DNA from: Hydrangea macrophylla
Lineage: Eukaryota; Streptophyta; Magnoliopsida; Cornales; Hydrangeaceae
Direction: 5' to 3'
Length of the DNA: 64,000 bases
Assembly: GCA_033977485.1 (NCBI GenBank)
Contig: CM066983.1
Coordinates: forward strand, 60,197,010-60,261,009
Every line of letters starts with the position of its first letter. Position 1 is the stretch's first letter. The notes beneath the pieces were generated by a model that did no database searches, was not told where the DNA came from, and saw only the letters and a program-made list of their open reading frames with translations. A program made the translations under genes and the position numbers. Shown here piece by piece: positions 289 to 50,237 of this stretch.

Positions 289-370
289 TGTTATACCCTA
301 TATCTTTAGTATATATTAATAAGATGAGATTCTATATGAATACTTTTACCATACTAAAAATTTAGTGTTC

Positions 371-534
371 AATCGATTGAACATGTATCAATCGATTGAA
401 GTGATGGCCTTTTCAATCGATCTTTGCGACCACGTTCAATCAATCGAAGCCTTATCAATCGATTGAAAGTGTGCCACCTGTCCTCAATCGATCGAAGTCG
501 TTTTGATCGATCGCGATCGATCGAACTTGTGTGT
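371..534. repeat. Palindrome array upstream of the TATA box, family A first LTR
   Basis: Repeated CAATCGATTGAA and GATCGATCGAA sites, several of them perfect palindromes on the core ATCGAT, spaced about 15-35 bp. The array stops about 50 bp before the TATA-like run at 586-594. Matching arrays lie at 19290-19482 in the middle LTR and 47525-47725 in the third LTR. Confidence 0.85.
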
Positions 535-585
535 ATATTTATCCCAGTTTCTGCATAAACACTGCCACCTTGCACCCTCAATTTC

Positions 586-594
586 TATATATAT
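586..594 (+). promoter_or_regulatory. TATA-like box of family A LTR
   Basis: TATATATAT follows the palindrome array and is followed by microsatellite-rich sequence, the expected U3/R position. The third LTR has a weaker equivalent near 47779. Confidence 0.5.
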
Positions 595-728
595 TGAACC
601 ATTTCGTGTGTGTGCGTGGTTGCTGAAAACCAGAGAGTTAGAGAGAGAGATTGTGTTTATATATACACAATCACATATATATACACACACACACACACAC
701 ATACACTCTTTCTATATATATACTTTTG

Positions 729-730
<2 letters not shown>

Positions 731-763
<33 letters not shown>

Positions 764-782
764 AGAAGAAGAAGAAGAAGAC
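731..782. repeat. GA and GAA microsatellites
   Basis: A (GA)n run followed by (GAA)n, with a short (AC)n run just before at about 681-700. These are simple repeats inside the LTR; shorter versions occur in the other family A LTRs. Confidence 0.9.
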
Positions 783-887
783 AGAACCACAAAAAGAAGA
801 GGAAGAAAAAGAAGACAGACCGAGAGTGGAAACAGAGACAAAGAGAAGGAAGGATGAGAGAGAGGAGAAGCCATTGGAGGAAGCTTG

Positions 888-2371
888 TGAAGGAAAAATT
901 AGGTTTCGAAAACTTAATTTAAGTAATTTATATGTGCAACAGAAAAACAAGTTTGTAAAACTTTATTGGTAGCCCGGATCTGCTACTCATCAACTCTATA
1001 GATGCGTAAAAGATAGGGGACAAGTGTATTACCTTACAGTCTTGAGCCCAATTCTGAATCTTCAAACTTCTGGATGGTGCAGCAACTTCTACTAGGTGAT
1101 TTTCACTCCAATGTCTCCTGCGAATACTTCAAGAGAGGCTAGAGATGGTGGGATCTTTAATAGGGAGGATAGAGAAGGTTTGGGAAACCCTAAACAGTTT
1201 CTACAGCTCTAGAATATGAAAAATGATGATTAAAATATTTTGTATGCAGCTGCCCTATTTATAGATTTCCAAACCAACTTTAACCTTCGATCGATTGAGG
1301 CACTTTCGATCGATTTGAACTTTTCTTAACATCAATCGATTGAAAATCTTTCTCTCGATCGAACCTGTCTTGATAAGATCCTCATGTGCCTTACCAAGCA
1401 TCCTGGTGGAGCAAAGAGTGGGACCTCCTAGGTTCTTTATTGTTGGCTTAGTCTAATTTGTTAATTCCCATGACCAAACTCTTTGATCAGCAAATTACCC
1501 AACTGATCAGTTAACGTTTACTCCACTATAAAACAATAGCTGAACTCCAATGCGAAAGAACAAATCCAAAACGATGTCTAGACTTGTACGGTGTACTAAT
1601 GCCCCTCTACCGTCAGTATCCATAATCATATTCAGGTAGTTGGATAAACTGTTACTGTCAACCAGAATAATGATTACATCTTTCATTCCTTGATGCCTAT
1701 TCACCCCTCATGATTACAAACATGATGATAACTCTTATAATCAAGACTGCAGTTCTCAGTAATCAACTTGGTGATATTCTCAAAGGAATGCTTACACTTT
1801 ATCAGAGGGTAGATTCTATCTTGACAATATATGTTCACAACCCTATGAACATGACATACCCAAGATACCCATGTGTTGATCTTTTATAGACATCACTGAT
1901 TGGTAAGTCAAAGCAGTCATATCCATAGTCTGTGTCCATAATTATCTCAAGATTAAGAAAACGTACCTTATACAAGTTATGAGTTCTTTTGACTATTGAC
2001 AGTTTTAAGTGTCAATAAAAAAGCTCATGGTCCGTTAATGTACTATAAGCACTATCATATTAACTAAGAGTCATACTCTAGTGATTGAGATTCATCACTC
2101 CATCCAATGGTAGTTAAACATGCTACAGTGTAAACCTGATGAGATATCCAGTCTTATCATCCATTGTAACAAATTCTAAGTATCAAAGAATAGTAATTCA
2201 TATCTCACTTATATGTATCTCATACACACACGAATTACTTACTATGATACATAAGGATTAACAGTCATCTCATGAAAGAAACACACATAATGAAGTGTAA
2301 AGCTGATATCCATATATTGAAATTCCAATGTCTCATACATAAAGTAATGGTTTGAGGGCACAATCCCAATA
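888..2371 (-). mobile_element. Solo copia-type LTR (family C), copy 1
   Basis: The insert is bounded by GCTTG at 883-887 and 2372-2376 and starts TGAAGGAAAA, ending CCCAATA. The third family A LTR reads uninterrupted at the equivalent place, near 48034. Length is 1484 bp. Much of it aligns with the LTR of the complete copia element in this window (15486-16978), so it is a related Ty1/copia LTR left after LTR-LTR recombination. No coding region lies inside. The strand is the inferred transcription direction, from the TATA box on the minus strand. Confidence 0.85.
1255..1372 (-). promoter_or_regulatory. Family C promoter: TATA box plus palindrome array
   Basis: On the minus strand CTATAAATAG occupies 1255-1264. 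Directly upstream on that strand, 1287-1372, are four or five ATCGAT-core sites. The second copy has the box at 20150-20159 and the array at 20183-20262. Confidence 0.65.
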
Positions 2372-2542
2372 GCTTGAAGCCGAAAGCTTTTCTAAACGTG
2401 ACTTTAACATCTTTATGTGAGTTCTAAACTCACTCTGTAGCCTAGGTGTGTTGTTTTACAAGTTTTGGATGTAAAGAATGAACACCAAATCACCCAAGAA
2501 ATTCTGGGCATTCACTGTCCAGTCTTTCAGAGAAGAAGACTT

Positions 2543-2645
2543 TCAAGCGATTGAACTTGGTTCAATTGATTAAAAACACTCAATTTTAATCTATTAAAAA
2601 TACTTCAATCGAGCGAGACCACATTGACTTCAATTGATCGAACAT
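2543..2645. repeat. Second palindrome array, family A first LTR
   Basis: Decayed ATCGAT-type sites spaced about 20-25 bp, some with C-to-T changes at the central CG. Equivalents lie at 40138-40235 and 48213-48303. They fall downstream of the presumed transcription start, inside a possible LTR intron. Confidence 0.7.
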
Positions 2646-3602
2646 CACAGAACATGATTATTTCTTTTGGTTATAATACATCTTGTTTAGTTGTTCCCAT
2701 ATTGATACGTACTTCTTATATACGATACTGTGGAATCAAGAGATAATGGAATGCAATAATGAGATAGCATTGTGAGAAACGTATTCAGGTTCGGGATATT
2801 AATTAATGGTTGATCCTAATCAAGTTTGATACTATGTTTTTTTTAATTAGAGTAGTTAGGCCACATGGGAATGTCATGTATTGGTGATAGATAATGTTAA
2901 GTAGGTTTTATTAGTTCTAGGAGACTTACTAGGACAGGCGTTGGTCGAGCATATGTCCTACGAAGCTATGGACTGTTAATATGTTCTATAATGCGGTGGA
3001 CCGGACCGATAGCCCAAAGATAGCTGGTAATCTGGTCATATGAACTATGACATGGTATACAGACGTAGGTTTCTATGACTTGCGGTGGACCAGAATTACT
3101 GGTAGATGTCATTAAGTCATGGAAATAGAACAGATGTGTCTTTGCTAGCGCTGAATTCCTAATATGTGGAGGATTGTGCATATGTTCTAATAAGGCGGGG
3201 GATGGACTGACGTGGTGTCCGTGACTGATAGTGGACTGTGAATAGGTATTCTCAAAATGTGGTAGATAGACGTAAGTGTCTATGACTTCCGGTGAATTGT
3301 GAATATGTATTCTCGAATGTGGTAGATAGGGTATTGGGGTATCCAGGAGCACTACAATCTGGTCTGCTTATTCATGAGTCAGATGTATGGGTTATTGTAT
3401 AAAAGACGTGAGTAACCGATTAATGAGTTTGGAATAGAGAGAAAGATATTATTAGTAGAACTATATTTTATGTCCTGCATAACTGGTTAAATCATTATAC
3501 CTACGATACTGTATTAGTTTCTATTCACCTAACTTCTAGGAAGTCGACGCCGTTTATGCCTGAACAATCTCAATCCATACTATGCTGTCCCTAACACTAC
3601 AG

Positions 3603-4165
3603 GGTAGGTAGTTGAGATGGCTGTCCAGTCAGACAGGTTTGTTATAGGAGAGGCTACATTAGCAGGGGCTATGGACATAGCAGAGGGATTTTCTATGATA
3701 GTCATCGACTCAGCCAACCAGGCGATGGTAGACATGATGGAAGACTCAGACGCAGTGATGGTTGATTATTAGGGGATTGGAGTTGTGATAAGAGGACTTG
3801 TCGTAACTGTGCACGATGATCCACCGGAGGAGATGGACCTTGCATCAGAGAATGAGGTACCACCAGCTAGATCAGATACTGATGACTTTTGAGTTAGGAT
3901 CTGTAGGATTTAGATTTTCTATCCATATCAGGCATGTTGTCCACTCTTTTAAGGATTTAACGATAGCAATTGACCGTAGCTCTTTTGTATAGTTAGCATG
4001 TAGTGGTATTGTAAATAGCTGACCTTAGCATTTGTATTAACTTATGTCCCATGCTGTACACCATTTGACTATTGTGTACTCCGCGATACATCAATTGATA
4101 TATATATATATATATATATAAATATACGAGTGTCTTTGAGGTATCTGTGACGTGGTTCTGACATA
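3603..4165 (+). other. Unassigned leader of internal copy 1
   Basis: No long open frame and no primer binding site recognisable. It matches 41199-41760 of copy 2 but not the last 406 bp of the third LTR, where a normal LTR end should be. A (TA)n microsatellite lies at 4098-4121. It may be a replaced or strongly diverged LTR end plus leader. Confidence 0.5.
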
Positions 4166-5338: not shown

Positions 5339-5339
5339 C

Positions 5340-5771
5340 TTGAAGAAGCTGGCTTTTGACGTTGAAGAGCAGCAACATTTAGAAGGTACACTTATACTCT
5401 TTTACAGTCGAGTTAAAGCTTTATTTGATATTGGTGCTGCACGCTCATTTATTATTGTTAAGATTATGCACCAGTTGGGTTTAGAACCCCAGGCACTTGA
5501 GCCAGCACTTAATGCTGTGTCACCCTTGGGAGAGAGTTATGTTGGGTAAAGTGTGCAAAGATTGCCCATTAACCCTGGAAGATAGGAATCTTCTGGCAGA
5601 CTTGGTAGTTCTGCAATGTCAGAGTTTAACATTATCCTAGGAATGGATTAGCTTACCAAGTATGGTGCTAACTTAGATTGCCCTACTAGGACTATCATGT
5701 TTTTAATACCTGGATGTCCTACGATCAGATTTCAGTGTTAGCTAACGAGTGACATGTTTTTTATAAGTTAT
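5340..5771 (+). pseudogene. Decayed aspartic protease, internal copy 1
   Basis: The active-site stretch reads LFDIGAARSFI at about 5428-5460, with isoleucine replacing the usual T or S of the D-T/S-G triad. It is followed by the ILGMDW-type motif near 5630, where a tryptophan codon is followed by a stop. Copy 2 keeps DTG at the same site. The family cuts the polyprotein; this copy cannot. Confidence 0.7.
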
Positions 5772-6227: not shown

Positions 6228-6490
6228 CCAATCGGTTGCCATTATATCCCAATCGATTGACACTTTTTGGTTAGCAATCAATTGACATCTTTCCCAATTG
6301 ATTGCCATGCTGCTGACCTGTATTCATTACATGGCACTATCCCAATCGATTTCCCTTCATCTCAATCGATTGCCTTGAAATATCTGATACCAATCGATTG
6401 CCACTGAGCCTAATCGATTGCCACTTATAGAGATAAGTTTTCAACTTTGCTTCATGGATTGACATGTGGCACTCTCAAATTCTATAAATA
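6228..6490 (+). promoter_or_regulatory. Family B promoter: palindrome array plus TATA box
   Basis: CAATCGATTG-type sites repeat from 6228 to 6424. TATAAATA follows at 6483-6490. The copy 2 equivalent is 43812-44066 with TATAAATA at 44059-44066. Several sites have lost the central CG by a transition. Confidence 0.7.
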
Positions 6491-6883: not shown

Positions 6884-7094
6884 CAATCGATTGGGCCATT
6901 TCCTAATCGATTGCCATCAGTCAGGACCCAATCGATTGGATAGTTTTCCAATTGATTGCCATTAGTTATAACCCAATCAATTTCCAAAGTTAGCAATCGA
7001 TTGGCTTTACTTTGGATCCAATCAATTGTCTTTTTCCTCAATCAATTATTATAGTTTTATCCCAATCGATTGGACCCTTGTCGTGATCGATTAG
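6884..7094. repeat. Second palindrome array, family B solo LTR copy 1
   Basis: About nine CAATCGATTG-like sites, intact and decayed, spaced about 20-25 bp, roughly 400 bp downstream of the TATA box. The copy 2 equivalent is 44402-44625. Confidence 0.8.
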
Positions 7095-8471: not shown

Positions 8472-9810
8472 CTGATCTTCAACTTCCAGCAGCCTCCACT
8501 AGATGATCTTCACCCTTATGACTCCTGCGGATGCCTGCCAGAAAGACTAGGGTTGGTGGGAACCCTAATGGAGAGGATAGAGAAGGTTTTGGGACTCCAA
8601 AACAGTTTCTGCAGCTTCTGACGTTTAAAACGATGAACAACTTTTTCCAGATTGCAGCTGCCCTATTTATAGATTCCCAGAACCGACCTAGACTTCGAGC
8701 GATCGAAGTGCATTCGATCGATCGAACATTCGATCGATCGAACCAGCTTCGATCGATCGAACCTGCAGACTTCAATCGATCGAGATATCTTCGATCGATC
8801 GAACCTGTCTGGACATCATCCTCAAGCATCTTTCCAAGCATCCTGGCGGAGCTAAGAGTGGGACCTCCTAGGCTCTTTATTGTTGGCTCAGACCAGTTTA
8901 TTAATTACCATGACCAAACTCTTTGATCAGCAAACTAACCAACTGGTCAGTTAACGTTTACTCCACTATAAAACGATAACTGAACTCCAACGCAAAAGAA
9001 CATATCCGAAGCGATAACTAGACTTGTATGTTGTACTAATGTCCCTCTACCGTCAGCATTCGTAATCATATTCAGGTAGTCGGATAACTGTTACTGTCAA
9101 CCTGAATCATGATTACTTCTTGTATTCCTTGAGTCCCATTCACTACTCATGATTACCAAACATGTTGATAACTCTTATCAACAAGACTGCAGTACTCAGT
9201 AATCGACATGGTGACATTCTCAAGGGAATGCTTACTCTGAAACAGAGGGTAGATTCTATCTTGACAATATATGTTCACAACCCTATGAATATGACATACC
9301 CAAGATACCCAGGTGTTGATCTTTTATAGACCTCACTGATTGGTAAGTCAAAGCAGCCATATCCACAGTCTGTGTTCATAATCGTCTCAAGATTGAGAAC
9401 ACATACCTTATACAAGTTATGAGTTCCTATTGACTGTTGACAGCATTGAGCGTCAATAGGAAACTCAGGTCCATCAATGCACTATAAGCACTAGCATATT
9501 AACCAAGAGTCACACTCTAGTGATTGAGATTTATCACTCCATCCAATGGTAGTTAATGATGCTACAGTGTATACCTGATGAGATATCCAGTCTCATCATC
9601 CACTGTGACAAGCTTTAAGTATCAAAGAATAGTAATTCGTATCTCATTGTATGTATCTCATACACACACGAAATACTTACTATGATACTTATGGATTAAA
9701 CAATCATCTCATGAAAGAAACATACATAATGAAATGTAAAGCTGATATCCATATATTAAAAAGTCAATGTCTAATACATAAAGTAATGGTTTGAGGGCAC
9801 AAACCCAACA
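8472..9810 (-). repeat. 3' LTR of copia element D, terminally truncated
   Basis: It matches 15640-16978 nearly base for base and ends at 9810 in CCCAACA. The first 154 bp of the matching LTR (15486-15639) are absent here. The palindrome array lies at about 8699-8806 and the TATA box at 8663-8672 on the minus strand. Confidence 0.92.
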
Positions 9811-9825: not shown

Positions 9826-12800
9826 TCATAACCATTCAGAACTACATCTAAGACCTAGACTATCTAGATGACGATCAAAGACCTTCTGTGGTAAGGCCTT
9901 TGTAAACGGATCAGCAAGATTGTCAGCGGTGGCAATCTTGGTGACAGTCACATCTCCACGTTGAACTATATCTCGGATTAGGTGATATTTCCGCTCTACG
10001 TGCTTTCCCTTTCCATGGTTCCTTGGCTCCTTGGACTGAGCCACTGCCCCACTATTATCACAATAAAGCGTAATAGGCGACAGCGACGCTGGTACCACCT
10101 CGAGTTCCATAAGGAACTTCTTGAGCCAAACAGCTTCCTTTGCGGCTTCACAAGCAGCCACATACTCAGCTTCTGTAGTTGAGTCTGCAATGCATTTCTG
10201 CTTAATGCTCCTCCAACTGACAGCACCACCTCCCAAGGTAAAGAGATGACCGGACGTCGACTTCCTCGAATCTTTATCTGACATAAAGTCCGAGTCAGTG
10301 TATCCCACTGGAATTAACTCACTACCACCGTACATAAGCATGTAATCTTTAGTTCTTCTCAAGTACTTAAGAATGTGCTTAACGGCTGTCCAGTGCTCTG
10401 GACCCGGATTCGACTGATATCTGCTAACCATGCCAACGACAAAGCAGATATCTGGTCTAGTGCATAACATCGCATACATGAGACTTCCCACTGCAGAAGC
10501 ATAGGGAACTCCTGTCATGCGATTCCTCTCCTCCTGTGTCTTTGGACACTGGTCCTTGGAGAACGCTAAACCATGCCTGAAAGGTAACAAACCTTTCTTC
10601 GAATTATCCATTGAAAACCTAGTTAGCACCTTATCGATATAACCAGCTTGAGATAATCCCATTATCTTTCGCTTGCGATCCCGAAAGAGCTTTATCCCAA
10701 GAATATAGCTCGCCTCTCCTAGATCCTTCATATCGAAAGTACTAGCTAGCCAAACCTTGACCGTTGACAATGCCGCTACATCATTTCCAATGAGTAGAAT
10801 GTCGTCAACGTAAAGCACAAGAAAAGCCACCACTTTTCCTTCACTCTTCTTGTATACACAAGGTTCATCCAGATTCTGTATGAAACCAAACGATTTGACC
10901 GCTTGGTCAAATCGTATGTTCCAACTTCTGGATGCCTGCTTAAGCCCATAAATGGACTTTTGCAACTTGTATACCAAGTTACCTTTCCGACCAGCTATGA
11001 ACCCTTCTGGTTGTTGCATATAGATGTCCTCCTCAAGATTGCCATTCAAGAATGCAGTCTTGACGTCCATCTGCCAGATCTCAAAATCTAGGCATGCAGC
11101 AACGGATAAGAGTATTCTGATGGACTTGAGCATGGCCACCGGCGAGAAGGTTTCCTCATAGTCAATGCCCTCCCTCTGAGTATAACCTTTCGCAACAAGC
11201 CTTGCCTTAAAGGTCTCAACCTTTCCATCAGATCCTCTTTTCCTCTTGTAGACCCATTTACAGCCAATGGGTTTAATATTGGCTGGAAGTTCTACAAGAT
11301 CCCAGATCTGATTAGAATCCATAGATTCCAATTCAGCCTTCATAGCTTTAACCCAATGAGCTGAATCAACATCAGCCATTGCCTCTTCGTATGTGGTAGG
11401 ATCAGATTCAGATTCTATGGAGACAGCTTCAAAAACTTCTCCTAAGAACATGTATCTATCAGGCTGGCTGATAATCCTTCCACTACGACGAGGTACTGGT
11501 GCGGAAATAGGTGAAGAAGTGGTGTTTTCCTGATTTACATCGTTATTAACTACGGGTTGGACTAAGGGCTCTCCTTCTATCTCTCTAAGATCTATCCTTC
11601 CCTTAGGTTTATGGTTCATGATATAATCATCCTCCAAGAAAATAGCATTCATACTGACGAAAACCTTCTGTTCTCTTGGATCATAAAAATACCATCCATA
11701 AGTACCCTTTGGATACCCCACGAAGTAACATACTTCCGATCTAGAATCCAACTTGCTCATCTTTCCTTTTAGCACATGTGCCGGACATCCCCATATCCGG
11801 AGATGTTGCAAAGAAGGCTTGCGCCCAATCCACATCTCTCGTGGTGTCCTGGGAACAGATTTGCTTGGTACTAGATTTAGTATGTAAGCAGCGGTTTCCA
11901 AAGCATAACCCCAAAGAAATAAAGGTAACTCAGAATAACTCATCATTGACCTAGTCATGTCTAAAAGAGTCCGATTCCTTCTCTCCGCTACACCGTTTTG
12001 CTGAGGCGTACCAGGTGCAGTCAACTGTGACAGAATCCCATTCTGTACGAGGTGATCAATAAATTCATTAGAGAGATACTCGCCACCTCGATCAGATCGA
12101 ATGGCCTTGATATGTGTGCCCAATTGCTTCTCCACTTCAGCCCTAAACTCTTTGAACTTTTCAAAGGCTTCAGACTTGTGCTGCATTAGGTACACATATC
12201 CATACCTAGAGTGGTCATCAGTAAATGCTATGAAATACTCATAACCACCCCTTGCTCTAATATTTATTGGTCCACACACATCAGTATGAACTAATTCCAA
12301 CAATGCATTGGTTCTATTGCCCTTTGCAGGAAAGGGCCTTTTGGTCATCTTACCCTCTAAACAAGACTCGCAGACTTCTATTGGTTCGAGAACCAAAACG
12401 CCTAAGACCCCTTCTTTGACTAGTCTGCCAATCCTATTTAGATTGATATGACCAAGCCTCATATGCCAAAGCCTTGTTGGATTAGTGGAAGATCTCTTTC
12501 TTTTAGATGGTACAGTTACCACTGAGTTATTAAGTTCCATACAAGAATCTTTAGAAATATTGGGAGTAATCACATACAAACCATTTGATTTAACACCAGA
12601 ACATATAAAAGAACTATTTCTTTTAATCACAACTTCAGTTCCAAAATTAAAAGAATAACCATTATTCGATAAATTAGAAACTGAAATTAAATTACGTCTC
12701 ATTGAAGGGACGTAAAGTACATCTGATAAAATCAAAACTTTATTGTCTAGAAATTCTAAAACTACGACTCCTATAGCAACCGCAGAAACGGTTGCGCTAG

Positions 12801-13815
12801 AACCTAGAGTAAGTACGATTTCCCCATCACTGCACTTCCTGGTTGATCTGAACCCCTGCAATGAATTACAGATATGGTTAGTCGCACCAGAATCAATGCA
12901 CCAAGTGTTTGAAGTATCCGTTATAAAACTTACTTCAATCACATGTGATTCAATCATACCTTGAACTCTTGTAGCTAAGAATTCTGGACAGTTCCTCTTC
13001 CAGTGGCCCTTCTCACCGCATTGGAAACACTTTCCTTTGCTTTGGCCACCCACCTTCCCTTTGCCCTTACCTTTTCCCTTAGATTTTGCAATCTTAGGGA
13101 CCGGTCCAACACTTGAACCTCCAGTGCAAGCCTTCTTCTTCCCTTTCTTTCCTTTCGGCACAGATCGGGAAGAGGAAGCGCTTTTCTCAACGTTTAAAAC
13201 GCTGCCCCCAGGTTTGATCACCCCTTCCGCTGCCAATAAAGAGCTCATCAATTCGCTCATTGAAAAATCCATTTTATTCATATTATAATTCAGTTTAAAT
13301 TGAGCGAATGATGGCGACAGCGTATTGAGAATCATATCAACTTGGGTCTGTGCATCGATGTTGGCACCTAGGGTCTCCAGCTCGTTTAAATAACCAATCA
13401 TTTTCAAAACATGTTCTTTGACTGGAGTCCCTTCCGACATCTTAGCACTCATTATCTTCTGCATAGCTACCTGTCTGGCAGGCCTGCCATGCTCCCCAAA
13501 CATCTTTTTCAGGGATTCGATAATGTCACTGGCGGAATTGTTCGACTGGTATTGGTGTTGTAACACATTAGCCATAGAAGCCAATATGTAACAACGAGCC
13601 ATCCCATTCAACTTTTTCCATTTATCGAACTCGCGTCTAGCAGCAGCCGAAGCATTTGCAGCGGGTTCTTCGGGGCATGGGGTGGTGAGGACATATATGT
13701 GATCCTCCGCAGTTAACACGATGTCAAGGTTACGTTTCCATTCAGTGTAGTTGTTTCCAGTTAACTTGTTTTGAGTGAGTATGGTGGCAAGTGGACTAAA
13801 TGCAAATCCAGACAT
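9826..13815 (-). CDS. Copia Gag-Pol polyprotein, intact
   Basis: This 1329-codon frame is uninterrupted. Order by residue: Gag about 1-255; basic linker; zinc knuckle [14 protein letters not shown] near 262; protease with [10 protein letters not shown] near 307; GAG-preintegrase LWHMRLGH near 448; integrase with VHTDVCGP near 510, RSDRGGEY and [14 protein letters not shown] with [18 protein letters not shown] and [12 protein letters not shown] near 1000; RNase H with GYTDSD and the STTEAEY block near 1215. Integrase before RT defines Ty1/copia. The start was chosen because ATG follows a strong 3' splice-site-like sequence and opens the Gag core. All catalytic motifs I can check are present, so it could still be autonomous. 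I do not assign the copia lineage. Confidence 0.95.
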
Positions 13816-15471
13816 TATGATTTACTGAAAAATCAAAAAACAAAATAAATATGGATATCAGAATTTGACAGTTTGAAATAAAAGAATCCTTTTAAAACTC
13901 TTATTTTAAAACAAAGTCGCCGGAATATCGAAACGAAAGAATAAAGCCTCCGTGTGGTGGTCAATGTTCGATCTTTCGATTTATCATAACTTATCCGCTA
14001 TGCAACTCTTGCAAAACAAGTTATGACTTCCGAACCTATTTGATCTCTAAGTTTCTGAATAATGCCCCGTGTGGGATCCCTTATCCATAGCTTAGCTAGT
14101 GTGTACCATTAACTAGGATCCAATCACAACCGTCTCAAGTAGCGCCTCCGTATGGTGGTCACCCTCTAACACGTCTGATTGATCCTTATCAAAAAGAAGT
14201 TCACATCTAGTAACCAATGAGTAATGCATCCTCCGTATGGAATGATCACCCCTGGCGAGGTGACACAGAATGCATCACTCATCTTATAGTGAACCGTTAA
14301 TGGAAGATCGTGGGTGTAATTAATAAGACCCTCTCCCACTAGATTTAGTAAAAAAGGATTTTGCTTTTTGAGAAAATCTGTTTCTACACACTTCCCATAA
14401 ACATCTAATGTTTACTAATGTGTTGAAAACGGTTTTTGAATTTTATTTTAGAAAACTTGTTTTGCGTGCATGCAACAATGTATTATACGCCAATCACAAA
14501 CAAAGCACATAAAACAAAAAACTAAAATGAAATAAAAGACATCCAAACGATGCCTCTATCTCCCATGGCTCTATCTCCATAGAACCTGCTTTTGGTTTGA
14601 TCACCTCCAGCTCCATCTTCATGGACAATTCTAATTCTATTACATTGAACCTATGCCTCTTTTGAAGCTTACAATTTATCTAGAAATAGAAATGGCAACA
14701 ACAAAATAAAAGGCTAGGGAAACCGGTGCGACTTTCCTTTTCGTAGGATTGAAGTCGCAGCGCCCTTTACATATGCCTTAAAACCAAACCAAACTTAAAA
14801 CAACACACCAATCTAAAACATTCAAACACAAAATTAAATGCTCTTGGCGCCATGGGAGATAGCGACTAACTTTTGCTGCAAAAGGTTAGTTGAACACACA
14901 TCCACGCATATATATAACAAAATATAACTATTGGAACCCTTAATTGATTCACACAGTATATAAACTCTTTACATACTGAATTAGAACTCAAAACAGCATC
15001 TAACTTCTCTGTCATAGTTCGATCGATCGAAGACCGTTCGATCGCTCGAACCTTCGATCGATTGAACACTGTTCAATCGCTTGAACATTCTATTTCACAG
15101 AATGATTAAAAATTTTGCAGAATACGTTAAAATTAATCTTTTAATTTCAAAATACTTTTAAAACTGTGAAACAAAGATCCTGACAAAGAGTCTGTCTCGA
15201 TCGATCGAACTCTGTTCGATCGCTCGAACAACAGAAGGTTTCGATCGATCGAAACCTGTTCGATCGCTCGAGTACAGAGCGTTCGATCGATCGAGACTAC
15301 TTCGATCGATCGAACCCATCTTGCATCCAATGCAATCACAGATTTGTATACTGCTGCGATAACACTGCAGAAACAGATCTGTGACGATGCAGTTTCGAAA
15401 GCAGTTCTAAAATCAACATGCAAATCAAAATAGTGTTCCAAAAAACGCATCTATGGATCCAAACGAGCGTG
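13816..15471 (-). other. Long 5' leader of copia element D
   Basis: About 1.65 kb between PBS and gag with no long frame. Immediately before the gag ATG, on the element strand, is a pyrimidine run ending TTTTTCAG (AG at 13825-13826), a good 3' splice site. A short box centred on CCTCCGTRTGG recurs near 13947, 14064 (shortened), 14144 and 14230. A palindrome array fills the far end (15015-15312). Confidence 0.6.
15015..15312. repeat. Second palindrome array, in the copia leader
   Basis: Ten or so sites of TTCGATCGATCGAA and the variant TTCGATCGCTCGAA, often alternating, in two blocks (15018-15090 and 15196-15315). It lies outside the LTR, between PBS and gag, so it would be in the genomic RNA. 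Confidence 0.85.
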
Positions 15472-15483
15472 GCTCTGATACCA
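15472..15483 (-). promoter_or_regulatory. Primer binding site (initiator tRNA-Met), copia D
   Basis: TGGTATCAGAGC on the element strand, two bases (AT) after the 5' LTR end. This is the standard plant initiator tRNA-Met complement. Confidence 0.92.
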
Positions 15484-15485: not shown

Positions 15486-16978
15486 TGTTGGAAAAACAGG
15501 TTTAAATGGAAAGTTTAAACGCGCAGCGGAAAAATCAAGTTATGAAACTTTATTGGCATGCCCAGATCTACTACTCGTCAATTCTACAGATGCGCACAAG
15601 AGGGGACACGAGTTATACCTTAATGTCTTGAACCCAATTCTGATCTTCAACTTCCAGCAGCCTCCACTAGATGATCTTCACCCTTATGACTCCTGCGGAT
15701 GCCTTCCAGAAAGACTAGGGTTGGTGGGAACCCTAATGGAGAGGATAGAGAAGGTTTTGGGACTCCAAAACAGTTTCTGCAGCTTCTGACGTTTAAAACG
15801 ACGAACAACTTTTTCCAGAACGCAGCTGCCCTATTTATAGATTCCCAGAACCGACCTAGACTTCGAGCGATCGAAGTGCATTCGATCGATCGAACATTCG
15901 ATCGATCGAACCAGCTTCGATCGATCGAACCTGCAGACTTCAATCGATCGAGATATCTTCGATCGATCGAACCTGTCTGGACATCATCCTCAAGCATCTT
16001 TCCAAGCATCCTGGCGGAGCTAAGAGTGGGACCTCCTAGGCTCTTTATTGTTGGCTCAGACCAGTTTATTAATTACCATGACCAAACTCTTTGATCAGCA
16101 AACTAACCAACTGGTCAGTTAACGTTTACTCCACTATAAAGCGATAACTGAACTCCAACGCAAAAGAACATATCCGAAGCGATAACTAGACTTGTATGTT
16201 GTACTAATGTCCTTCTACCGTCAGCATTCGTAATCATATTCAGGTAGTCGGATAACTGTTACTGTCAACCTGAATCATGATCACTTCTTGTATTCCTTGA
16301 GTCCCATTCACTACTCATGATTACCAAACATGTTGATAACTCTTATCAACAAGACTGCAGTACTCAGTAATCGACATGGTGACATTCTCAAGGGAATGCT
16401 TACTCTGAAACAGAGGGTAGATTCTATCTTGACAATATATGTTCACAACCCTATGAATATGACATACCCAAGATACCCAGGTGTTGATCTTTTATAGACC
16501 TCACTGATTGGTAAGTCAAAGCAGCCATATCCACAGTCTGTGTTCATAATCGTCTCAAGATTGAGAACACATACCTTATACAAGTTATGAGTTCCTATTG
16601 ACTGTTGACAGCATTGAGCGTCAATAGGAAACTCAGGTCCGTCAATGCACTATAAGCACTAGCATATTAACCAAGAGTCACACTCTAGTGATTGAGATTT
16701 ATCACTCCATCCAATGGTAGTTAATGATGCTACAGTGTATACCTGATGAGATATCCAGTCTCATCATCCACTGTGACAAGCTTTAAGTATCAAAGAATAG
16801 TAATTCGTATCTCATTGTATGTATCTCATATACACACGAAATACTTACTATGATACTTATGGATTAAACAATCATCTCATGAAAGAAACATACATAATGA
16901 AATGTAAAGCTGATATCCATATATTAAAAAGTCAATGTCTAATACATAAAGTAATGGTTTGAGGGCACAAACCCAACA
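15486..16978 (-). repeat. 5' LTR of copia element D
   Basis: 1493 bp with ends TGTTGG and CCAACA in an inverted-repeat relation. It is nearly identical to the truncated left LTR. It is also alignable at lower identity to the family C solo LTRs, so C and D are sister families. Confidence 0.93.
15831..15973 (-). promoter_or_regulatory. Copia D promoter: TATA box plus palindrome array
   Basis: CTATAAATAG on the minus strand (15831-15840). Upstream on that strand, 15866-15973, are six ATCGAT-core sites, four of them the 14-bp palindrome TTCGATCGATCGAA or close to it. Gaps between sites are about 5-12 bp. The 3' LTR repeats the arrangement. Confidence 0.75.
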
Positions 16979-19155: not shown

Positions 19156-21229
19156 GCTCTACTACATCAGATTTCGAAGATGAAATCTTTTAATTAGTGG
19201 TGGATGTTGTAATACCCTGTATTTTTAGTATATATTAATTAGATAAGATTTTGTATGAATACCGTTACCATACTTATAATTTAGTGTTCAATCGATTGAA
19301 CCTATTTCAAATGATTGAAGTGATGGCCTTTTTAATCGATCAAACCCATTTTAGGAGATCGAAACCCTAATGACATAAATGCTATGATTGCGATCATGTT
19401 CAATTGATCGAAGCCTTGTCAATCGATTGAAGGTGTGCCACATGTCCTCAATTGATCAAAGTCGTTTTGATCGATCGAACTTGTCTGGATATTTATCCCA
19501 GTTTCTACGTAAACACTACCACCTTGTACCCTTAATTTCTATATATATTTAACCATTTCGTGTGTGTGAGTGGTTGCTAAAAACCAGAGAGTTAGATAAA
19601 GATTGTGTTTATATATACACACACACATACACACACTCTCTCTCTATATATATACTTTCATGCAGAGAGAAAGAAAGGAAGACAGAACCAGAAAAAGAAG
19701 AAGAAAAAAAAGAAGACAGACCGAGAGTGGAAACAGAGACAGAGAGAAGTAAGGAGGAGAGAGAGGAGAAGCCATTGGAGGAAGCTTGTGAAGTAAAAAT
19801 TAGGTTTTGAAAACTTAATTTAAGTAATATGCACAATGGAAAAACAAGTTTGTAAAACTTTATTGGTAGCCCAGATCTACTACTCATCAACTCTATGGAT
19901 GCGTACAAGAGAGGGGACAAGTGTATTACCTTACAGTGTTGAACCCAATTCTGAATCTTCAAACTTTTGGATGGTGCAACAACTTCGATTAGGTAAACTT
20001 CACTCCTATGTCTCCTGCGAATACTCGAGAGAGGCTAGAGAGGTGGGATCTTTAATAGGGAGGATAGAGAAGGTTTGGGAAACCCAAAACAGTTTCTACA
20101 GCTCTAGAATATGAAAAACGACGATTAAAATATTTTATATGCAACTGCCCTATTTATAGATTTCCAAACCAACTTTAACCTTCGATCGATTGAGGCACTT
20201 TCGATCGATTCGAACTTGTCTTAACTTCAATTGATCAAAACTCTTTCAATCGATCAAACCTGTCTTGACAAGATCCTTATATACCTTGCCAAGCATCCTG
20301 GTGGAGCAAAGAGTGGGACCTCCTAGGTCCTTTATTGTTAGCTCAGACCAGTTGTTAATTCCCACGAACAAACTCTTTGATCAGCAAATTAACCAACTAA
20401 TCAGTTAACATTTACTCCACTATAAAACAATAACTGAACTCCAATGCAAAAGAACAAATCTGAAGCGATGTTTAGACTTGTATGGTGTACTAATGTCCCT
20501 ATACCGTCAGCATCCATAATCATATTCAGGTCGTCGGATAAACTTTTACTGTCAACCAGAATAATGATTACATCTTTCATTCCTTGAGTCCTATTCCCCC
20601 CTCATGATTATCAAATATATTGATAACTCTTATCATCAAGACTGCAGTTCTCAGTAATCAACTTGGTGACATTCTCAAAGGAATGCTTACTCTTTATCAG
20701 AGGGTAGATTCTATCTTGACAATATATGTTCACAACCCTATGAACATGACATACCCAAGATACCCAGGTGTTGATCTTTTATAGACCTCACTGATTGGTA
20801 AGTCAAAGCAGTCATATCCATAGTCTGTGTCCATAATTGTTTAAAGATTAAGAACACGTACCTTCTACAAGTTATGAGTTCCTATCGACTGTTGACATTA
20901 TTAAGTGTCAATAGGAAAGCTCATGGTCTGTCAATGCACTATAAGCACTAGCATATTAACTAAGAGTCATACTCTAGTGATTGAGATTCATCACTCCATC
21001 CAATGGTAGTTAAATATGCTACAGTGTAAACCTGATGAGATACCCAGTCTTATCATCCACTGTGATAAATTACATGTATCAAAGAACAATAATTTGTATC
21101 TCACTTCTATGTATCTCAAACACACACGAATTACTTACTATGATACATAAGGATTAACAGTTATCTCATGAAAAAAAACACACATAATGAAGTGTAAAGC
21201 TGCTATCCATATATTAAAATGCCAATGTC

Positions 21230-43708: not shown

Positions 43709-45698
43709 TGTAATACCTTGTATTTTGGAATGTATATTAATAAGTCAGACTTGGTATTTTTTCCTGTATACTTATATGATCCTTACCCTTCTGTTGGACA
43801 TGTTTGAGTCCCAATCGATTGCCATTACATCCCAATCGATTGACAGTTTTTGGTTAGCAATCGATTGGTATCTTTCCCAATTGATTGCCATGTTGCTGAC
43901 CTGTATTCATTACATGGCACTATCCTAATCGATTGCCCTTCATCTTAATCGATTGCCTTGAAATATCAATCGATTGCCACTGAGCCTAATCGATTGCCAC
44001 CTATAGAGATAAGTTTTCAACTTTGCTTCATGGATTGACATGTGGCACTCTCAAATTCTATAAATATGGATTCATTTCTTGCCCTTGGTTATTTTACAAA
44101 TTTCTTAGGAGAGAGAGATTTGATATATATACACACCCACATATATATAAATATATACATACAAGCATGCATACACATGCACATACACATACACTGCCTT
44201 GAGGCATAGAAGAGGAAAAGAATAAGAAGAAGAAAGAAGGAAGAAGAAGAAATAGAGGAGAGGCAGAGGAGAAGAGGATAGAAAAAGCTTGAAAACTTTA
44301 TAGCCAAACACACCCCACACTCAACTAGTTGAGTTTAACTCACTTAATTCCTTTTATATGAATGTTTATAAGTTTTATAGAAGTTTAGACGTAACAAACA
44401 CGTCCCAATCGATTGAACTTTTTCCTAATCGATTGCCATCAGTCAGGACCCAATCGATTAGATAGTTTTCCAATCGATTGCCATTAGTTATAACCCAATC
44501 GATTTCCAACGTTAGCAATTGATTAGCTTTACTTTGGATCCAATCAATTGTTTTTTTCCTTAATCAATTATTATAGTTTTATCCCAATCAATTGGACCCT
44601 TGTCCCAATCGATTGGCAATCACAGAGCATGGATTGTTTCTTTTGGTTATTATATAAGGGTTCGATTGTTCAATTTTTGAGTCAGACTTTCATTATGCGA
44701 CTATTGGGATAATCAGGGACAATGTGATACCAAAGATAAGTATGGGGTGAGTAGTGGATTAATGTTATAATGTTAGTGATTATGTTGTTCGTCATTGAGT
44801 TCGATATCCGTTTCACTTCAATCAGAGTAGTCAGGCCACAATGGGATTTGTCGTGTATCTATATTCGTACTGAACATAGGTAGGTTTTATAAGTTCTGGG
44901 AATTGGACGTGGGCAATTACTTGGTCATGTTATGTCTTTAATGAGCAGGGGATGGACTGACGTGGTATCCATGACATGCTATGGATGGTATATATCCTTA
45001 ACAAGCAATGGACAGAATAATGGTGTATCTATAAGTTTTGAATGATTGAGTCTGTTCTTTCAGTCAAGGTATGTTGATTATCGTTCATAGGATAATAAGA
45101 CGTTAAGGGTTGAGTAATGATGTTTGAATCAAGATGAAGATACTATTATAACACTATATCTTATTCATTTCATAACTTGTTATTACGTTATATAACTGGT
45201 ACCCTGTTAGTTTGTATTCACTCAGCTCTCAGTAAGCTGACGGCCATTATTGCCTGGACCTTCCCTATCCAGACTACCCTATTTCATACCTTGCAGGTGA
45301 TGATCATTACCAGGATGGTTATTATGTGGAGGAAGGCTATGCTGAATACGTGCTGGGGGAAGGAGGCGAGGATAGACAACACTATTACGTTGACGACTAC
45401 ATTTAAGCCAGCTGAAGAACTAGATAGTTATTGGTTTTATTTCTGTTGAACTTATGTAGAATCGGTGCTAGGGCATATGTTGCTTCCAGACCTTTTCGTA
45501 GTCCTGTGGGCAACTCTGATGTTTTTGTAATAACTAGAATGGTTGTAACATATTCAATATATGTATATTATTTTTTTTGTTGTTCTATCATACTAGTACT
45601 GTATGGTGTGGACAATTTAGTGACATTCATTTGTCATTCCCTATGGACCCAAAAAGAAAATTTAACTTTCTTTATTTTTGCTATTTTATGGCATGACA
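43709..45698 (+). mobile_element. Solo gypsy-type LTR (family B) in RT, copy 2
   Basis: 1990 bp, TGTAATACC to GCATGACA. Flanks are GGTAT (43704-43708) and GTTAT (45699-45703), the mirror of the mismatch in copy 1. Palindrome arrays are at 43812-44000 and 44402-44625, TATAAATA at 44059-44066. Confidence 0.9.
45296..45406 (+). other. Short acidic, tyrosine-rich open frame, copy 2
   Basis: 36 codons to TAA with YQDGYYVEEGYAEYVLGEG and YYVDDYI, same length as at 7772-7882 and also placed directly after a CAG. Confidence 0.4.
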
Positions 45699-46735
45699 GT
45701 TATCGACTTCCTCAGATAGACGATCTATTCGATTAGCTGCAAGGATTAAGGATCTTTTCAAAGATAGATTTACATTGAGGATATGATCAGTTGTTAGTTC
45801 GACCAGAGGTTCTATCAAAGACTACAGTCAGGATGATATACGGGCAGTATGAGTTCTTAGGTATGCCTTTCAGATTAACAGTATTCATGGACTTAGTGAA
45901 TAGAGTATTCAGACCATATCTAGATCAATTCATTATATCATTCGTCGATGATATCCTGATCTATTCCAAAAAAGAGGAAGATCACAAGGAACACTTATAG
46001 ATTGCTTTACGGACGCTCAAAGATAGTAAGCTATATGCAAAGTTTAGTAATTGCAAGTTTTGGCTATAAAAATTAAAATTTCTTGGACATGCTATCTCGC
46101 AGAATGGCATATCTGTAGACTCATCTAAGATAGATACAGATTTAAGCTAGAATAGACCGACCAATGTGATAGAAGTTTGAAGTTTTCTCGATCTAGTCGG
46201 ATATTACAGAAGATTTGTAGATGAATTCTCTAAGATTGCAAGATCATGGGAAAATTTGACAAGAAAAGAGACAAAGTGCGAATGGACAGATAAGCATAAG
46301 GGTGTATTTTAGGAACTAAAGAAAAGATTAACCTCAGCCCCTATACTTGCAATACAAAAGAGTGGGGAAAGGTATATAATCTACAGCGATGCATCACACC
46401 AAGGACTTGGGTGTGTGCTTATGCAAGACGAGAGTGTGATTGCGTACAGATCTAGAAAACTGAAGCCATATGAGAAGTACTATCCCATGCACGATTTGGA
46501 ATTAGCTACGATAGTGTTTGCGTTGAAGATATGGAGACACTATCTATATGTAGAGAAGTTTGATCTTTTCTTAGATCACAAGGGCTTAAGATATCTATTC
46601 TGTCAGAAGGAGTTGAATATACGACAACGAAGGTGGATGGAGTTGTTCAAGGATTATGACTTTTCATTATAATACCACTCGGGTAAGACAAATGTCATAG
46701 CCGATGCTTTAAGTCATCAACCTTGACTAGTAATT
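45699..46735 (+). pseudogene. RT and RNase H, copy 2
   Basis: RT continues with YRLPQIDDLFD and [13 protein letters not shown] to [11 protein letters not shown] (45940-45972), then the FLGHAIS and VGYYRRF blocks. RNase H has [16 protein letters not shown], the [11 protein letters not shown] block and DHKGLRYLF, ending ALSHQP near 46725. It includes the stretch that copy 1 lost at the copia junction. Several stops. Confidence 0.85.
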
Positions 46736-47400
46736 ACTATCCTATTGATATGAGAATGGCGAGCATTGGAGGTTTTAGCTAAATTCGATCTTCTGCTAAT
46801 GGAAACAACAGAAGGACATCATCTTGGATGTCTTGTCGTACAGTCGACTCTAATTAGCCAAATTATAGAGGCTCAACAAAAGAGATGGTACGAGAAACCA
46901 GTGTGAAGATGATTACATCTTAAACCCAACATAAGAGTTAAGTTGACAAGCGATGCAAAGACTTTGAATTCATTGTTGGAGATCATGTACTGCTCAAGGT
47001 CTCACCTGTTTGAGGCATCGTTAGATTTGGTCAAAAGAGAGACAAGCTATCGTTGCAATTCATCGGACTATTCAAGATTCTGGAGCTTGTTGGGAAGGTT
47101 GCCTGTCTACTTGCGTTGCCACCAAAGATGTCAAGAGTGCACAACATTTTCCATATCAAAATGTTGAGAAAGTATGCCCATAATCTAGCAAACGAGGTCA
47201 ACTTTAAAGACATTAACGTCAATTACAACGTCACTATCAACAAAGGACCATTATTGATCCTAGACCATGGAATCAAGAAGCTCAGAAACAAGGAGATTCC
47301 ACTAGTAAAGGTTTAGTGGAAGCATCATGATAAAGGCGAAGCTTCGTGGGAACTGGAGTTAAGGATGCATGAGAAGTTTTCGTTTTTGTTTTAGCTCTAC
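46736..47400 (+). pseudogene. Integrase remnant with large deletion, copy 2
   Basis: After EAQQ at about 46880 the sequence jumps to the block that in copy 1 lies at about 18650, removing about 830 bp with the zinc region and all catalytic residues. The tail (SRVHNIFHIKMLRKYAHN, ILDHGIKKL, EIPLVKV) remains and ends near the third LTR. Confidence 0.85.
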
Positions 47401-47445
47401 TACATTAGATTTCGAGGACGAAATCTTTTAATTAGTGGTGGATGA

Positions 47446-49659
47446 TGTAATACCTTGTACTTTTAGTATATATTAATAAGATAAGATTTTGTATGAATAC
47501 CTTTACTATACTTATAATTTAGTGTTCAATCAATTGAACCTATTTCAATCGATTGAAGTGATGACCTTTTCAATTGATCGAACCCATTTCAGGCGATCGA
47601 AACCCTGCCGACATAAATGCAATGATTGCGACCACGTTCAATTGATCGAAGCCTTGTCAATCGATTGAAGGTGTGTCACTTGTCCTCAATCGATCGAAGT
47701 TGTTTTGATTGATCGAACTTGTCTAGATTTTTATCCCAGTTTTTGTGCAAACACTGCCACCATGCACCCTTAATTTCTATATACATTGAACCATTTCGTG
47801 TCTATACGTGGTTGCTAAAAACCACAGAGTTAGAGAGAGAGAGAGATTAGGTTTATATATACATATACTTATATATATATACACACATACACTATATATA
47901 CTTTTGGGTAGAGAGAAAGAGGAATACAACCATAAAATGAAGAAGAAGAAAAAGAAGATAGACCGAGAGAGGAGACAGAGACAGAGATAGAGAGAAGGAA
48001 GGAGGAGATAGAGGAGAAGAAATTGGAGAAAGCTTGAAGCCCAAAGCTTTGCCAAACGCGCCCTTATCACCTTTAGGTGAGTTCTAAACTCACTTGATAG
48101 CCTAAGTATGTTGTCTTACAAGTTTTGGAGGTAAAGAATAAACCCCAAAGCACCCTAGAAATTTTGGGTGTTCACTGTCCAGTCTTGTAGAAAAGAAGAC
48201 TTCCAAGCGATTAAACTTGCTCCAATCGATTGAAAACACTCAATTTCAATTGATTGAAAATACTTCAATCAATCGAGACCACCTTGACTTCAATCGATCG
48301 AACATCACATAATATGATTATTATTTTTGGTTATAATACATACTGTTTAGTTTCCATATTGAATCGTACTTCCTGTATGCAATACTGTGGAATCAAGAGA
48401 TAATGGAATGCAATAATGAGATAGCATTATAAGAAATGTACTTAGGTTCGGGATAGTAATTAAAGGGTTGATCCTAATCGAGTTTGATGATACATTTATT
48501 TTAATTAGAGTAGTCAGGCCATATGGGAATGTCATGTATCGGTGATAGATAACGTGAAGCAGGTTTGATAAGTTCTAGGAGACTTATAAGGACGGGCGTT
48601 GGTCGAGCATATGTCCTACGAGGCTGTGGACTGTTAAAATGTCCGATAATACGGTGGACCGGACCGATAGCCCAAAGATAGCTGGTAATCCAGTCATATG
48701 AACTACAACATAAATGTAGGTTTTTATAACTTGTGGTGGATCAGAGTTACTGGTAGATGTTGTTAAGTCATGGCAATAGAACGGATGTGTCTTTGCTCAA
48801 AGCATTGACTCCCTGACATGTGGAGGACTATGCATATGTTGTAATAAGGCGGGGATGGACTGACATGGTGTCTGTGACTTGAGGTGGATTGTGAATAGGT
48901 ATTCTCAAAATATGGTAGACAGACGTAGGTGTCTATGACTTGCGGTGAATTGTGAATATGTTTTCTAGAACGCAGTAGATAGGGCATTGGTGTATCTAAG
49001 AGTACTACAATCTGGTCTATTTATCCATGAGTCGAATGAATGGGTTATTGTATAAAAGATGTGAGTAACCGATTAATGAGTTTGGAATAAAGAGAGATTT
49101 TACTAGCAGAACTATATTTTGTGTCCTCCATAAATGGTTAAATTATTATACCTACGATACTGTGTTAGTTTCTATTCACTCAGTTTCTAGTAAGCTAAAG
49201 GCGTTTATGCTTGGACCTTCTCCATCCACACTAACTTGTCCCTAACACTATAGGTAATGAGGCTTACAATAATGGCTACTACCCAAAGGAAGGATGTGCG
49301 GAGGGTGGCCCCATTGAGGATGGAGATTCTGGAGAGGCTACTATGCTGACGACTACGTCTATGCGAGCTGAAGATTTAGTTTCTATTTTTGTTATAGACT
49401 TTTATATTATGTTTTGTGATTGGGCATACGTTGCCCTAACATTTTAGTATTTCTGCTTATAGAACTCTGATGTAATAATTTGTACATTTGTAATGTACTC
49501 AGTTTCCTTTATGTTACTATTCTGTTTACTTACTGCTTGGTTAGACTGTGTGGTGTGGACAATTTAGTGACTTCACCAGTCATTCCCTATGGACCTAAAA
49601 AGAAAATTTGACTATTTTATTTATTCATTTTTCTATTTTTGCTGTTCTAGGGCATGACA
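47446..49659 (+). repeat. Third (3') LTR of family A, uninterrupted
   Basis: 2214 bp, TGTAATACC to GCATGACA, followed by target repeat AATTG. It is the reference for the other two LTRs. Arrays are at 47525-47725 and 48213-48303. A GTGAGTTC donor-like site is at 48077 and an acceptor-like ACACTATAG ends at 49253. Confidence 0.88.
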
Positions 49660-49664
49660 AATTG

Positions 49665-49940
49665 AGAGCACCGCCCTTCCTCTCTCTCTCTCTCTCTCTC
49701 TCTCATAGTATAGGGCTAGATCCATAAAAATTAATCAAATAGTCGTTCCTAAGTTGGCCCAAAAATTCAGAATGAACAAAATAGATAGTAGGAATAGGGG
49801 GCCTCAACCCTTGACAAGCGGGGGTATTTGTAAAATACAACCGCGCTAAAAGAAAAAAATGTACTAAATTATTTCACAATTCCTTTATTTATCTGCAGTT
49901 TGAATTACAAGGCCAGTTTGTGCACAATTCGATTAAACTA
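49665..49940. other. Flank between the composite and the Athila LTR
   Basis: Contains a (TC)n microsatellite at 49681-49704. No gene. It is probably a short piece of the original target region. Confidence 0.5.
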
Positions 49941-50064
49941 TGATAAGTGGTGTTGTTTTAGTAGTTATTCGTGCAGGTTATTGTTGCCGTGTGAAGAATT
50001 GGATGCGAAAGATAAACGGAAGTGCTGAATTGTAATGAAGATAACTAAAGATGAAAAGTGGACC

Positions 50065-50237
50065 TCGATCGATTGAAGAACAGTCGATCGATCGAAGGTT
50101 TGATCGATCGAGAGAATCTCAAGCTCTCGAAGATCCCAGAAGTTCAATCGATCGATCGACCATGACTTTTATCAGATTATACGCGCACGCAGCGGAATGG
50201 ACTGGGAACCCTAAGCATTAGGTTTTTAGTATAAATA
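50065..50237 (+). promoter_or_regulatory. Athila promoter: palindrome array plus TATA box
   Basis: Sites at 50065-50163 include TCGATCGATTGAAG, GTCGATCGATCGAAG and CAATCGATCGATCGAC. TATAAATA follows at 50230-50237. Confidence 0.7.

What the first reader, a model, noticed from the sequence alone, without database searches (positions are those of the whole stretch)
289..50237. ATCGAT-core palindrome arrays sit just upstream of the TATA box in five different LTR families
Arrays lie at 371-534 (family A, TATA 586), 6228-6424 (B, TATA 6483), 1287-1372 (C, minus, TATA 1255-1264), 15866-15973 (D, minus, TATA 15831-15840) and 50065-50163 (Athila, TATA 50230). A, B and Athila are Ty3/gypsy; C and D are Ty1/copia. 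Their LTRs otherwise do not align between groups, apart from A with B and C with D. The shared arrangement (multiple CAATCGATTG or TTCGATCGATCGAA sites, 5-35 bp apart, within about 200 bp of the TATA box, in either element orientation) suggests a common regulatory module acquired or converged on by unrelated elements, perhaps a host transcription-factor site. The young Ogre LTR and the terminal chromovirus LTR lack it.
Basis: partly seen in the sequence, partly recalled or inferred. Interest (0 to 1): 0.88.

Follow-up and report, generated by a model that had tools for sequence, protein, structure and literature searches.

The report
Shared palindrome arrays at retrotransposon promoters
In this large plant genome, unrelated families of jumping genes carry the same short mirror-image DNA word in clusters just before the start of their own transcription, probably because they all exploit one host switch.

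Summary
ATCGAT occurs 85 times in the window (simulations: mean 17, maximum 29) in 14 clusters; 70 sites lie in 2.5 kb of arrays. Genome-wide it lies 45-75 bp upstream of TATAAATA 26,244 times, against 6,226 on the downstream side and 6,446 and 6,893 at 400-430 bp up- and downstream. Three corrections. (1) The "five families" are about four: C and D are one copia family; A and B are distantly related. (2) All four also have a second array downstream of the TATA box; genome counts at one distance do not confirm that position. (3) Elsewhere a copia and a gypsy element use CAGTCGACTG, so most sites fit CRRTCGAYYG, a consensus drawn up afterwards. The three one-step CpG-decay classes of the 14-bp site stand at 51,183: 14,602: 6,971, where plain decay predicts equality. 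I read the arrays as promoter-proximal sites for an unidentified host DNA-binding protein; nothing here shows binding. Palindrome arrays before the TATA box are known in Sireviruses, including a tobacco element with this motif; sharing between copia and gypsy appears new.

The parts
370..525 (+). Family A (Ty3/gypsy) upstream array: 7 ATCGAT, TTCAATCGATTGAA type plus CGATCG sites
586..594 (+). Family A TATA box (TATATATAT)
2530..2645 (+). Family A second array, decayed (CAATTGATT-like remnants), after the inserted C LTR
   Evidence: by eye; better kept counterpart at 48223-48302
1287..1362 (-). Family C (copia-like LTR) upstream array, 3 ATCGAT
1256..1263 (-). Family C TATA box TATAAATA
6230..6424 (+). 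Family B upstream array, 5 intact ATCGAT plus decayed sites
6483..6490 (+). Family B TATA box TATAAATA
6884..7092 (+). Family B second array, 6 ATCGAT, 403 bp after TATA
8700..8803 (-). Family D upstream array in the truncated 3' LTR, 5 ATCGAT
15865..15971 (-). Family D (Ty1/copia) upstream array in 5' LTR, 5 ATCGAT, 4 of them TTCGATCGATCGAA
15832..15839 (-). Family D TATA box TATAAATA
15472..15483 (-). Family D primer-binding site TGGTATCAGAGC
15018..15314 (-). Family D second array in the leader after the PBS, 6 ATCGAT with TTCGATCGCTCGAA-type sites between
9826..13821 (-). Family D gag-pol open frame (Retrotran_gag_2, rve, RVT_2): Ty1/copia
19289..19478 (+). Second copy of the family A upstream array, partly decayed
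20182..20256 (-). Second copy of the family C upstream array
43812..43996 (+). Second copy of the family B upstream array, 7 ATCGAT (TATA 44059)
44406..44615 (+). Second copy of the family B second array, 6 ATCGAT
47529..47712 (+). Third copy of the family A upstream array, 3 intact ATCGAT; TATA box altered
48223..48302 (+). Third copy of the family A second array, 2 intact ATCGAT
50065..50160 (+). Athila-like LTR upstream array, 5 ATCGAT
50230..50237 (+). Athila-like TATA box TATAAATA
50660..50735 (+). Athila-like second array, 3 ATCGAT, 433 bp after TATA
51425..51441 (+). TGGCGCCGTTGCCGGGG, Athila/Tat-type primer-binding site (type recalled)

Best explanation
The arrays are promoter-proximal cis-elements of LTR retrotransposons. 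Each palindrome is most likely a binding site for a dimeric host DNA-binding protein with half-site roughly GAYYG (full site CRRTCGAYYG). Three to seven sites per array, 26-120 bp upstream of the TATA box and often repeated downstream of the start, drive or time transcription of the element. Unrelated copia and gypsy families carry the site because the host factor is available where new copies can be inherited. Shown: the arrays, their position, their spread over unrelated families and the bias in which decayed sites are common. Inferred: the protein, the activation and the convergent origin.
For: Position: 26,244 genome matches with ATCGAT 45-75 bp upstream of TATAAATA, 6,226 downstream, 6,446 and 6,893 at 400-430 bp up- and downstream; crude background 3,358 per band from sample densities. 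Spread: upstream arrays in A, B, C/D and Athila here, in L003/L004 and L020 of unknown lineage, and as GTCGAC in the copia element of L013. Specificity: one-step CpG transitions of TTCGATCGATCGAA, all in a T-CG-A context, number TTCGATCGATTGAA 51,183, TTTGATCGATCGAA 14,602, TTCGATTGATCGAA 6,971; strand-symmetric decay predicts equal classes, and pairing would leave a G-U wobble in each (reasoned, not computed). The two arrays of a family mostly share flanks: B, D, Athila, L003. Family D looks recently active: all 40 scored LTR matches, the window's own included, print 100% identity; the first look had 2,119 candidates and only the best 40 were scored.
Against: No protein, binding or expression data. 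Genome counts are dominated by C/D- and Athila-like copies in the part of the list that was printed, so they are not independent events; the variant ratio may partly reflect which master copies were amplified. CRRTCGAYYG was drawn up after seeing the loci; GGATCGATCC arrays (L008, L020) and an AACCGGTT array (L007) do not fit it. Two distinct cores weaken a single-factor reading. The second array is not enriched at +400-430 over -400-430 genome-wide. L001 has a downstream-type cluster only, and L008 4485-4584 has no TATA box at either position.
Confidence: 0.57

Rival explanations
1. Structure: palindromes pair with one another in the transcript or in single-stranded DNA. The folded array serves packaging or dimerisation, or feeds small-RNA silencing, as proposed for maize Sirevirus palindromes.
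For: Seven arrays fold better than dinucleotide shuffles (z -2.5 to -9.8; two control stretches -0.7 each). Second arrays lie in the 5' leader and U3 arrays at the RNA 3' end (from LTR anatomy). PMC10760457 (passages) reports an excess of small RNAs over maize Sirevirus palindrome clusters.
Against: Strong folding follows from any palindrome array. The decay bias is not expected, since each variant should leave a G-U pair. The array tracks the TATA box rather than the PBS: D has its second array after the PBS, B and Athila before.
Confidence: 0.15
2. CpG island: what matters is dense CpG at the promoter (methylation gate or moving target), whichever palindrome holds it, as suggested for Del LTRs.
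For: CpG o/e in six of eight arrays measured is 1.9-2.6 against 0.6 for the window. Del LTRs have a length-variable 5' and sometimes a 3' CpG island (PMC4029996, passages). Array length varies between near-identical D copies (L032 has 4 upstream sites, most others 5). Other palindromes with central CpG also form arrays.
Against: The two B arrays have CpG o/e of only 0.8-0.9 yet 5-6 sites. CpG density alone does not explain one core ranking first of 136 CG hexamers.
Confidence: 0.13
3. Neutral growth: palindromes expand by slippage or template switching during reverse transcription and hitchhike with amplified masters; the position upstream of TATA is where U3 tolerates length change.
For: Array length changes between near-identical copies; repeats in U3 are common (recalled).
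Against: It does not predict the same core in unrelated families, nor flanks shared by arrays several hundred bp apart.
Confidence: 0.1
4. Exchange: one family acquired the array and others took it by recombination or template switching, without a need for convergence.
For: D and Athila share the same 14-bp form; D and L009 arrays align at about 75% over 120 bp.
Against: That alignment is limited to the repeats; A, B and L003 use other flanks.
Confidence: 0.05

Closest known systems
Sirevirus repeated motifs (Bousios et al. 2010, PMC2829016; abstract, sections 9 and 19 and passages seen)
   Same: Multiple palindromes clustered in the LTR just upstream of a TATA box, with CpG islands. Tobacco Tnd-1 (host recalled) has 8 copies of ACAATCGATTGT, which contains the present site; the Vitis motif CGGTCGACCG fits CRRTCGAYYG; Osr8 and Osr10 have that half-site with one base between.
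   Different: That paper calls the motif Sirevirus-specific and absent from classic elements. Here it is in a copia family without the Sirevirus PPT and in Ty3/gypsy elements. Apart from Tnd-1, the 13 Sirevirus motifs have a CGG-CCG signature; Tnd-1 itself lacks the conserved TATA motif there.
Maize Sirevirus palindromes CACCGGACNNNGTCCGGTG (Bousios et al. 2016; not held; known here only through passages of PMC10760457)
   Same: Palindrome clusters in the cis-region of the LTR, with predicted secondary structure
   Different: Different sequence; one genus of elements; small-RNA data exist there, none here
5' and 3' CpG islands of Del LTRs (Cruz et al. 2014, PMC4029996; passages seen)
   Same: One or two CpG islands per LTR, the 5' one variable in length; A and L022 are gypsy elements that may be of this lineage (not tested)
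   Different: The word palindrome does not occur in that text; eudicot Del elements lacked islands

Membership tests
Sirevirus-type repeated motif (RM) | Palindrome in many copies within the LTR (at least 8 per element in the paper) | tested here: inconclusive
   3-7 ATCGAT per upstream array; 8 or more only when both arrays are counted (B, D, Athila)
Sirevirus-type repeated motif (RM) | Cluster a short distance upstream of the TATA box | tested here: met
Sirevirus-type repeated motif (RM) | Cluster forms a CpG island | tested here: inconclusive
   CpG o/e 1.9-2.6 in A, C, D, Athila arrays; 0.8-0.9 in B; no formal island call
Sirevirus-type repeated motif (RM) | CGG-CCG core | tested here: not met
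   core TCGA; Tnd-1 is the published exception
Sirevirus (element D) | AGGGGGAG polypurine tract at the 3' LTR | tested here: not met
   none in the D element
Sirevirus (element D) | RT placement in the Sirevirus clade | not tested
   no reference tree built; only RVT_2, rve and gag_2 domains found
Ty3/gypsy (element A) | Gypsy-type protease, RT-RNaseH and integrase parts | tested here: met
   RVP_2, RT_RNaseH and SH3_Tf2-1 in 3 of 7 pieces; 4 pieces had no match
Athila/Tat lineage (LTR about 49660-51423) | TGGCGCCGTTGCCGGGG-type PBS, gypsy-type gag and same-strand pol | tested here: inconclusive
   PBS and Retrotrans_gag found (that this PBS marks Athila/Tat is recalled); the pol frames at 53261-57478 lie on the other strand, so pol was not found
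Host transcription-factor site | Bound by a named protein | not testable with these tools
   no binding data or plant motif library on hand

The most novel reading that the evidence does not exclude
One conserved plant DNA-binding protein (half-site GAYYG) has been exploited independently by copia and gypsy elements in several angiosperms, from Tnd-1 to the families here, making its palindromic site a general key to LTR activity.
Probability: 0.27. Interest if true: 0.82.

Novelty: new variant of a known kind. Interest (0 to 1): 0.6.

Why it matters
It turns a described oddity of one copia genus into a cross-superfamily rule in one genome, and gives a concrete DNA bait (CRRTCGAYYG) for finding the host protein that plant retrotransposons may rely on. 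The central CpG also suggests how methylation could switch binding off.

Tried and rejected
Rejected: chance (simulations); a general compositional effect (136 CG hexamer classes compared); 'five independent families'. A test of recurrent 8-mers did not clearly favour palindromes: with strict flank dissimilarity 2 of 186 in the sample and 3 of 66 in the window were palindromic, against 0.78% expected; array flanks are themselves alike and so were largely filtered out. The genome test of the second array at +400-430 gave no asymmetry. L007 1205-1374, counted as a cluster, is a degenerate tandem repeat. Searches for copies of A and B and for CAATCGATTG pairs did not complete, so A and B were compared only within the window. 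Counts of intact TTCGATCGATCGAA and of GTCGAC before TATA were asked twice each and never answered. The host species was not established (inconclusive); I left it unnamed. One search used only clusters of 3 or more sites, only chosen arrays.
Full report
Setting. The window is G000:C2:60197010-60261009 of a 2.22-Gb genome in 19 contigs. It is a nest of LTR retrotransposons. Self-comparison and reading show a tandem structure: a family A element repeated as LTR-internal-LTR-internal-LTR (units 86-89% alike). A family B LTR sits in both internal regions, and a family C LTR in the first two A LTRs but not the third (47446-49659). Further right lies an Athila-like LTR followed by TGGCGCCGTTGCCGGGG at 51425 and a gypsy-type gag. 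Repeated A, B and C arrays in the window are therefore probably duplicates of single events.

Observation. ATCGAT occurs 85 times. Markov-1 simulation gives 17.4 on average and 29 at most in 200 runs; clusters of three or more number 14 against 6 in all 200 runs together; 70 of the 85 sites lie in 2,455 bp of arrays. The five stated arrays and TATA boxes are correct. C and D are one family at 82-83% identity.

Beyond the window. In 20 stretches of 10 kb at fixed steps on the contigs, ATCGAT has 65 copies and 8 clusters, the most of 136 CG-centred hexamer classes. Five clusters lie in or beside Athila-like (L008, L009) or D-like (L014) sequence; two (L020; L008 4485-4584) match no family of the window; one (L007) is a tandem repeat. 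Three of the four loci, which were found by an ATCGAT pair pattern, add further arrays (L001, L003, L004); L003 and L004 hold copies of one unclassified 1.13-kb repeat (95.7%). Of 27 clusters of three or more sites in window, sample and these loci, 16 have a TATA box within 150 bp downstream, against 10.8% of random segments. One of the 16 (15022) has a chance TATA, and copies are not independent. Of the other 11, 9 have a TATA box 336-437 bp before them in the same orientation; no random rate was computed for that, and one (L007) is probably spurious. L001 shows only the downstream type of cluster.

Genome counts. ATCGAT 45-75 bp upstream of TATAAATA: 15,502 + 10,742. The same distance downstream: 2,902 + 3,324. 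At 400-430 bp: downstream 3,189 + 3,704, upstream 3,438 + 3,008. The patterns read backwards give 1,908-2,474 per search. Density in the sample predicts about 3,358 per band, from only 30 TATAAATA and 65 ATCGAT. So close upstream position is specific. The second array, plain in the anatomy of A, B, D, Athila and L003, is not confirmed at that one distance; D's lies at 530-820 bp and would be missed. The sequences printed (first places of contig C1 only) show C/D, Athila-like and A types and at least two others (ending GAATCTCTGTGTATAAATA and GGTGGAAATACTTATAAATA).

Anatomy. Element D: LTR 1,491 bp, TATA at 1140, upstream array 1012-1094, PBS at 1496, second array 1669-1957, gag-pol frame 3158-7153. 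Because D's second array lies after the PBS while those of A, B and Athila lie within the LTR, the common reference point is the promoter, not the PBS. Within a family both arrays mostly share flanks: B CA-ATCGAT-TG, D and Athila TTCG-ATCGAT-CGAA, L003 CA-ATCGAT-TG. Near-identical D copies differ in site number (L032 has 4 upstream sites, most others 5).

A wider motif. Palindromes with GTCGAC occur as arrays in L013 (Ty1/copia by gag domain; about 100-260 bp upstream of TATATATA) and L022 (Ty3/gypsy by protease, RNase H and integrase domains; 180-400 bp before the LTR 3' end, 1.0-1.2 kb after a TATAAATA). CAATCGATTG, CGATCGATCG and CAGTCGACTG all fit CRRTCGAYYG. Of CG-centred palindromic 10-mers, 18 of 51 in the sample and 42 of 51 in the window fit; 4 of 256 possible ones do. 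The consensus was made after seeing these loci. GGATCGATCC arrays (L008, L020) and an AACCGGTT array (L007) do not fit, so palindrome arrays as such are wider than this motif.

A test of mechanism. TTCGATCGATCGAA has three CpGs in the same T-CG-A context. Each of the three classes counted covers two single changes, so strand-symmetric decay predicts equal numbers. The count was planned after a small local count had already hinted at a bias (5, 2 and 0). Genome counts: TTCGATCGATTGAA 51,183, TTTGATCGATCGAA 14,602, TTCGATTGATCGAA 6,971; reversed controls 8, 22 and 14. RNA pairing should leave a G-U wobble in all three. The bias fits a protein that accepts R/Y at that position and needs the centre; amplification of a few masters could produce part or all of it.

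Literature. Bousios et al. 2010 (PMC2829016; abstract, sections 9 and 19 and passages seen) describe palindromic repeats upstream of the TATA box in 13 Sireviruses and state they are absent from classic elements; Tnd-1 has 8 copies of ACAATCGATTGT. By eye, 2 of 13 of their motifs contain CRRTCGAYYG (Tnd-1, Vitis) and 2 more (Osr8, Osr10) have the half-site with one base between. Cruz et al. 2014 (PMC4029996, passages) describe up to two CpG islands in Del LTRs. Searches for CAATCGATTG, AATCGATT with transcription factor, TCGATCGA with retrotransposon, ATCGAT with palindrome and LTR, palindromes before TATA in gypsy elements, and convergent binding sites in unrelated LTRs (listings only, partly capped) showed me no title or abstract on sharing between copia and gypsy; the library lacks most subscription journals.

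Verdict. Real, genome-wide, positioned at promoters and shared by unrelated families. The best reading is a host-factor site exploited convergently; the factor is unknown and nothing here shows binding.

Noticed in passing
window 289-49659: Tandem LTR-internal-LTR-internal-LTR arrangement of family A; B and C insertions shared by two units, C absent from the third LTR (empty site near 48031).
   Followed up: partly
window 53261-57478: Minus-strand pol frames (RVT_1, RNase H) lie behind the plus-strand Athila-like LTR and gag; 53271-56468 is 72.8% identical to 30082-33277 in the Ogre element, so a second element of that kind seems inserted in the opposite orientation.
   Followed up: no
window 25311-27327: Several blocks of tandem repeats inside the young Ogre element.
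   Followed up: no
window 15018-15314: In D's leader, TTCGATCGATCGAA-type sites alternate with TTCGATCGCTCGAA-type sites; the latter also lies nearest the TATA box in many of the C/D sequences printed.
   Followed up: no
L007 498-571: Array of AACCGGTT palindromes: another palindrome class, no TATA box seen beside it.
   Followed up: partly
G000:C1 about 0.01-1.37 Mb: Matches recur with the same sequences near 12 kb, 512 kb and, inverted, 1.37 Mb (also 98, 602 and 1267 kb): a triplicated block, real or an assembly artefact.
   Followed up: no
L027, L032: Near-identical D copies with altered array length, showing array instability.
   Followed up: partly
G000:C1:2904752 and 2911940: Identical ATCGAT-to-TATAAATA stretch 7,188 bp apart, the spacing of an LTR pair, without a palindrome array in the stretch shown.
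   Followed up: no
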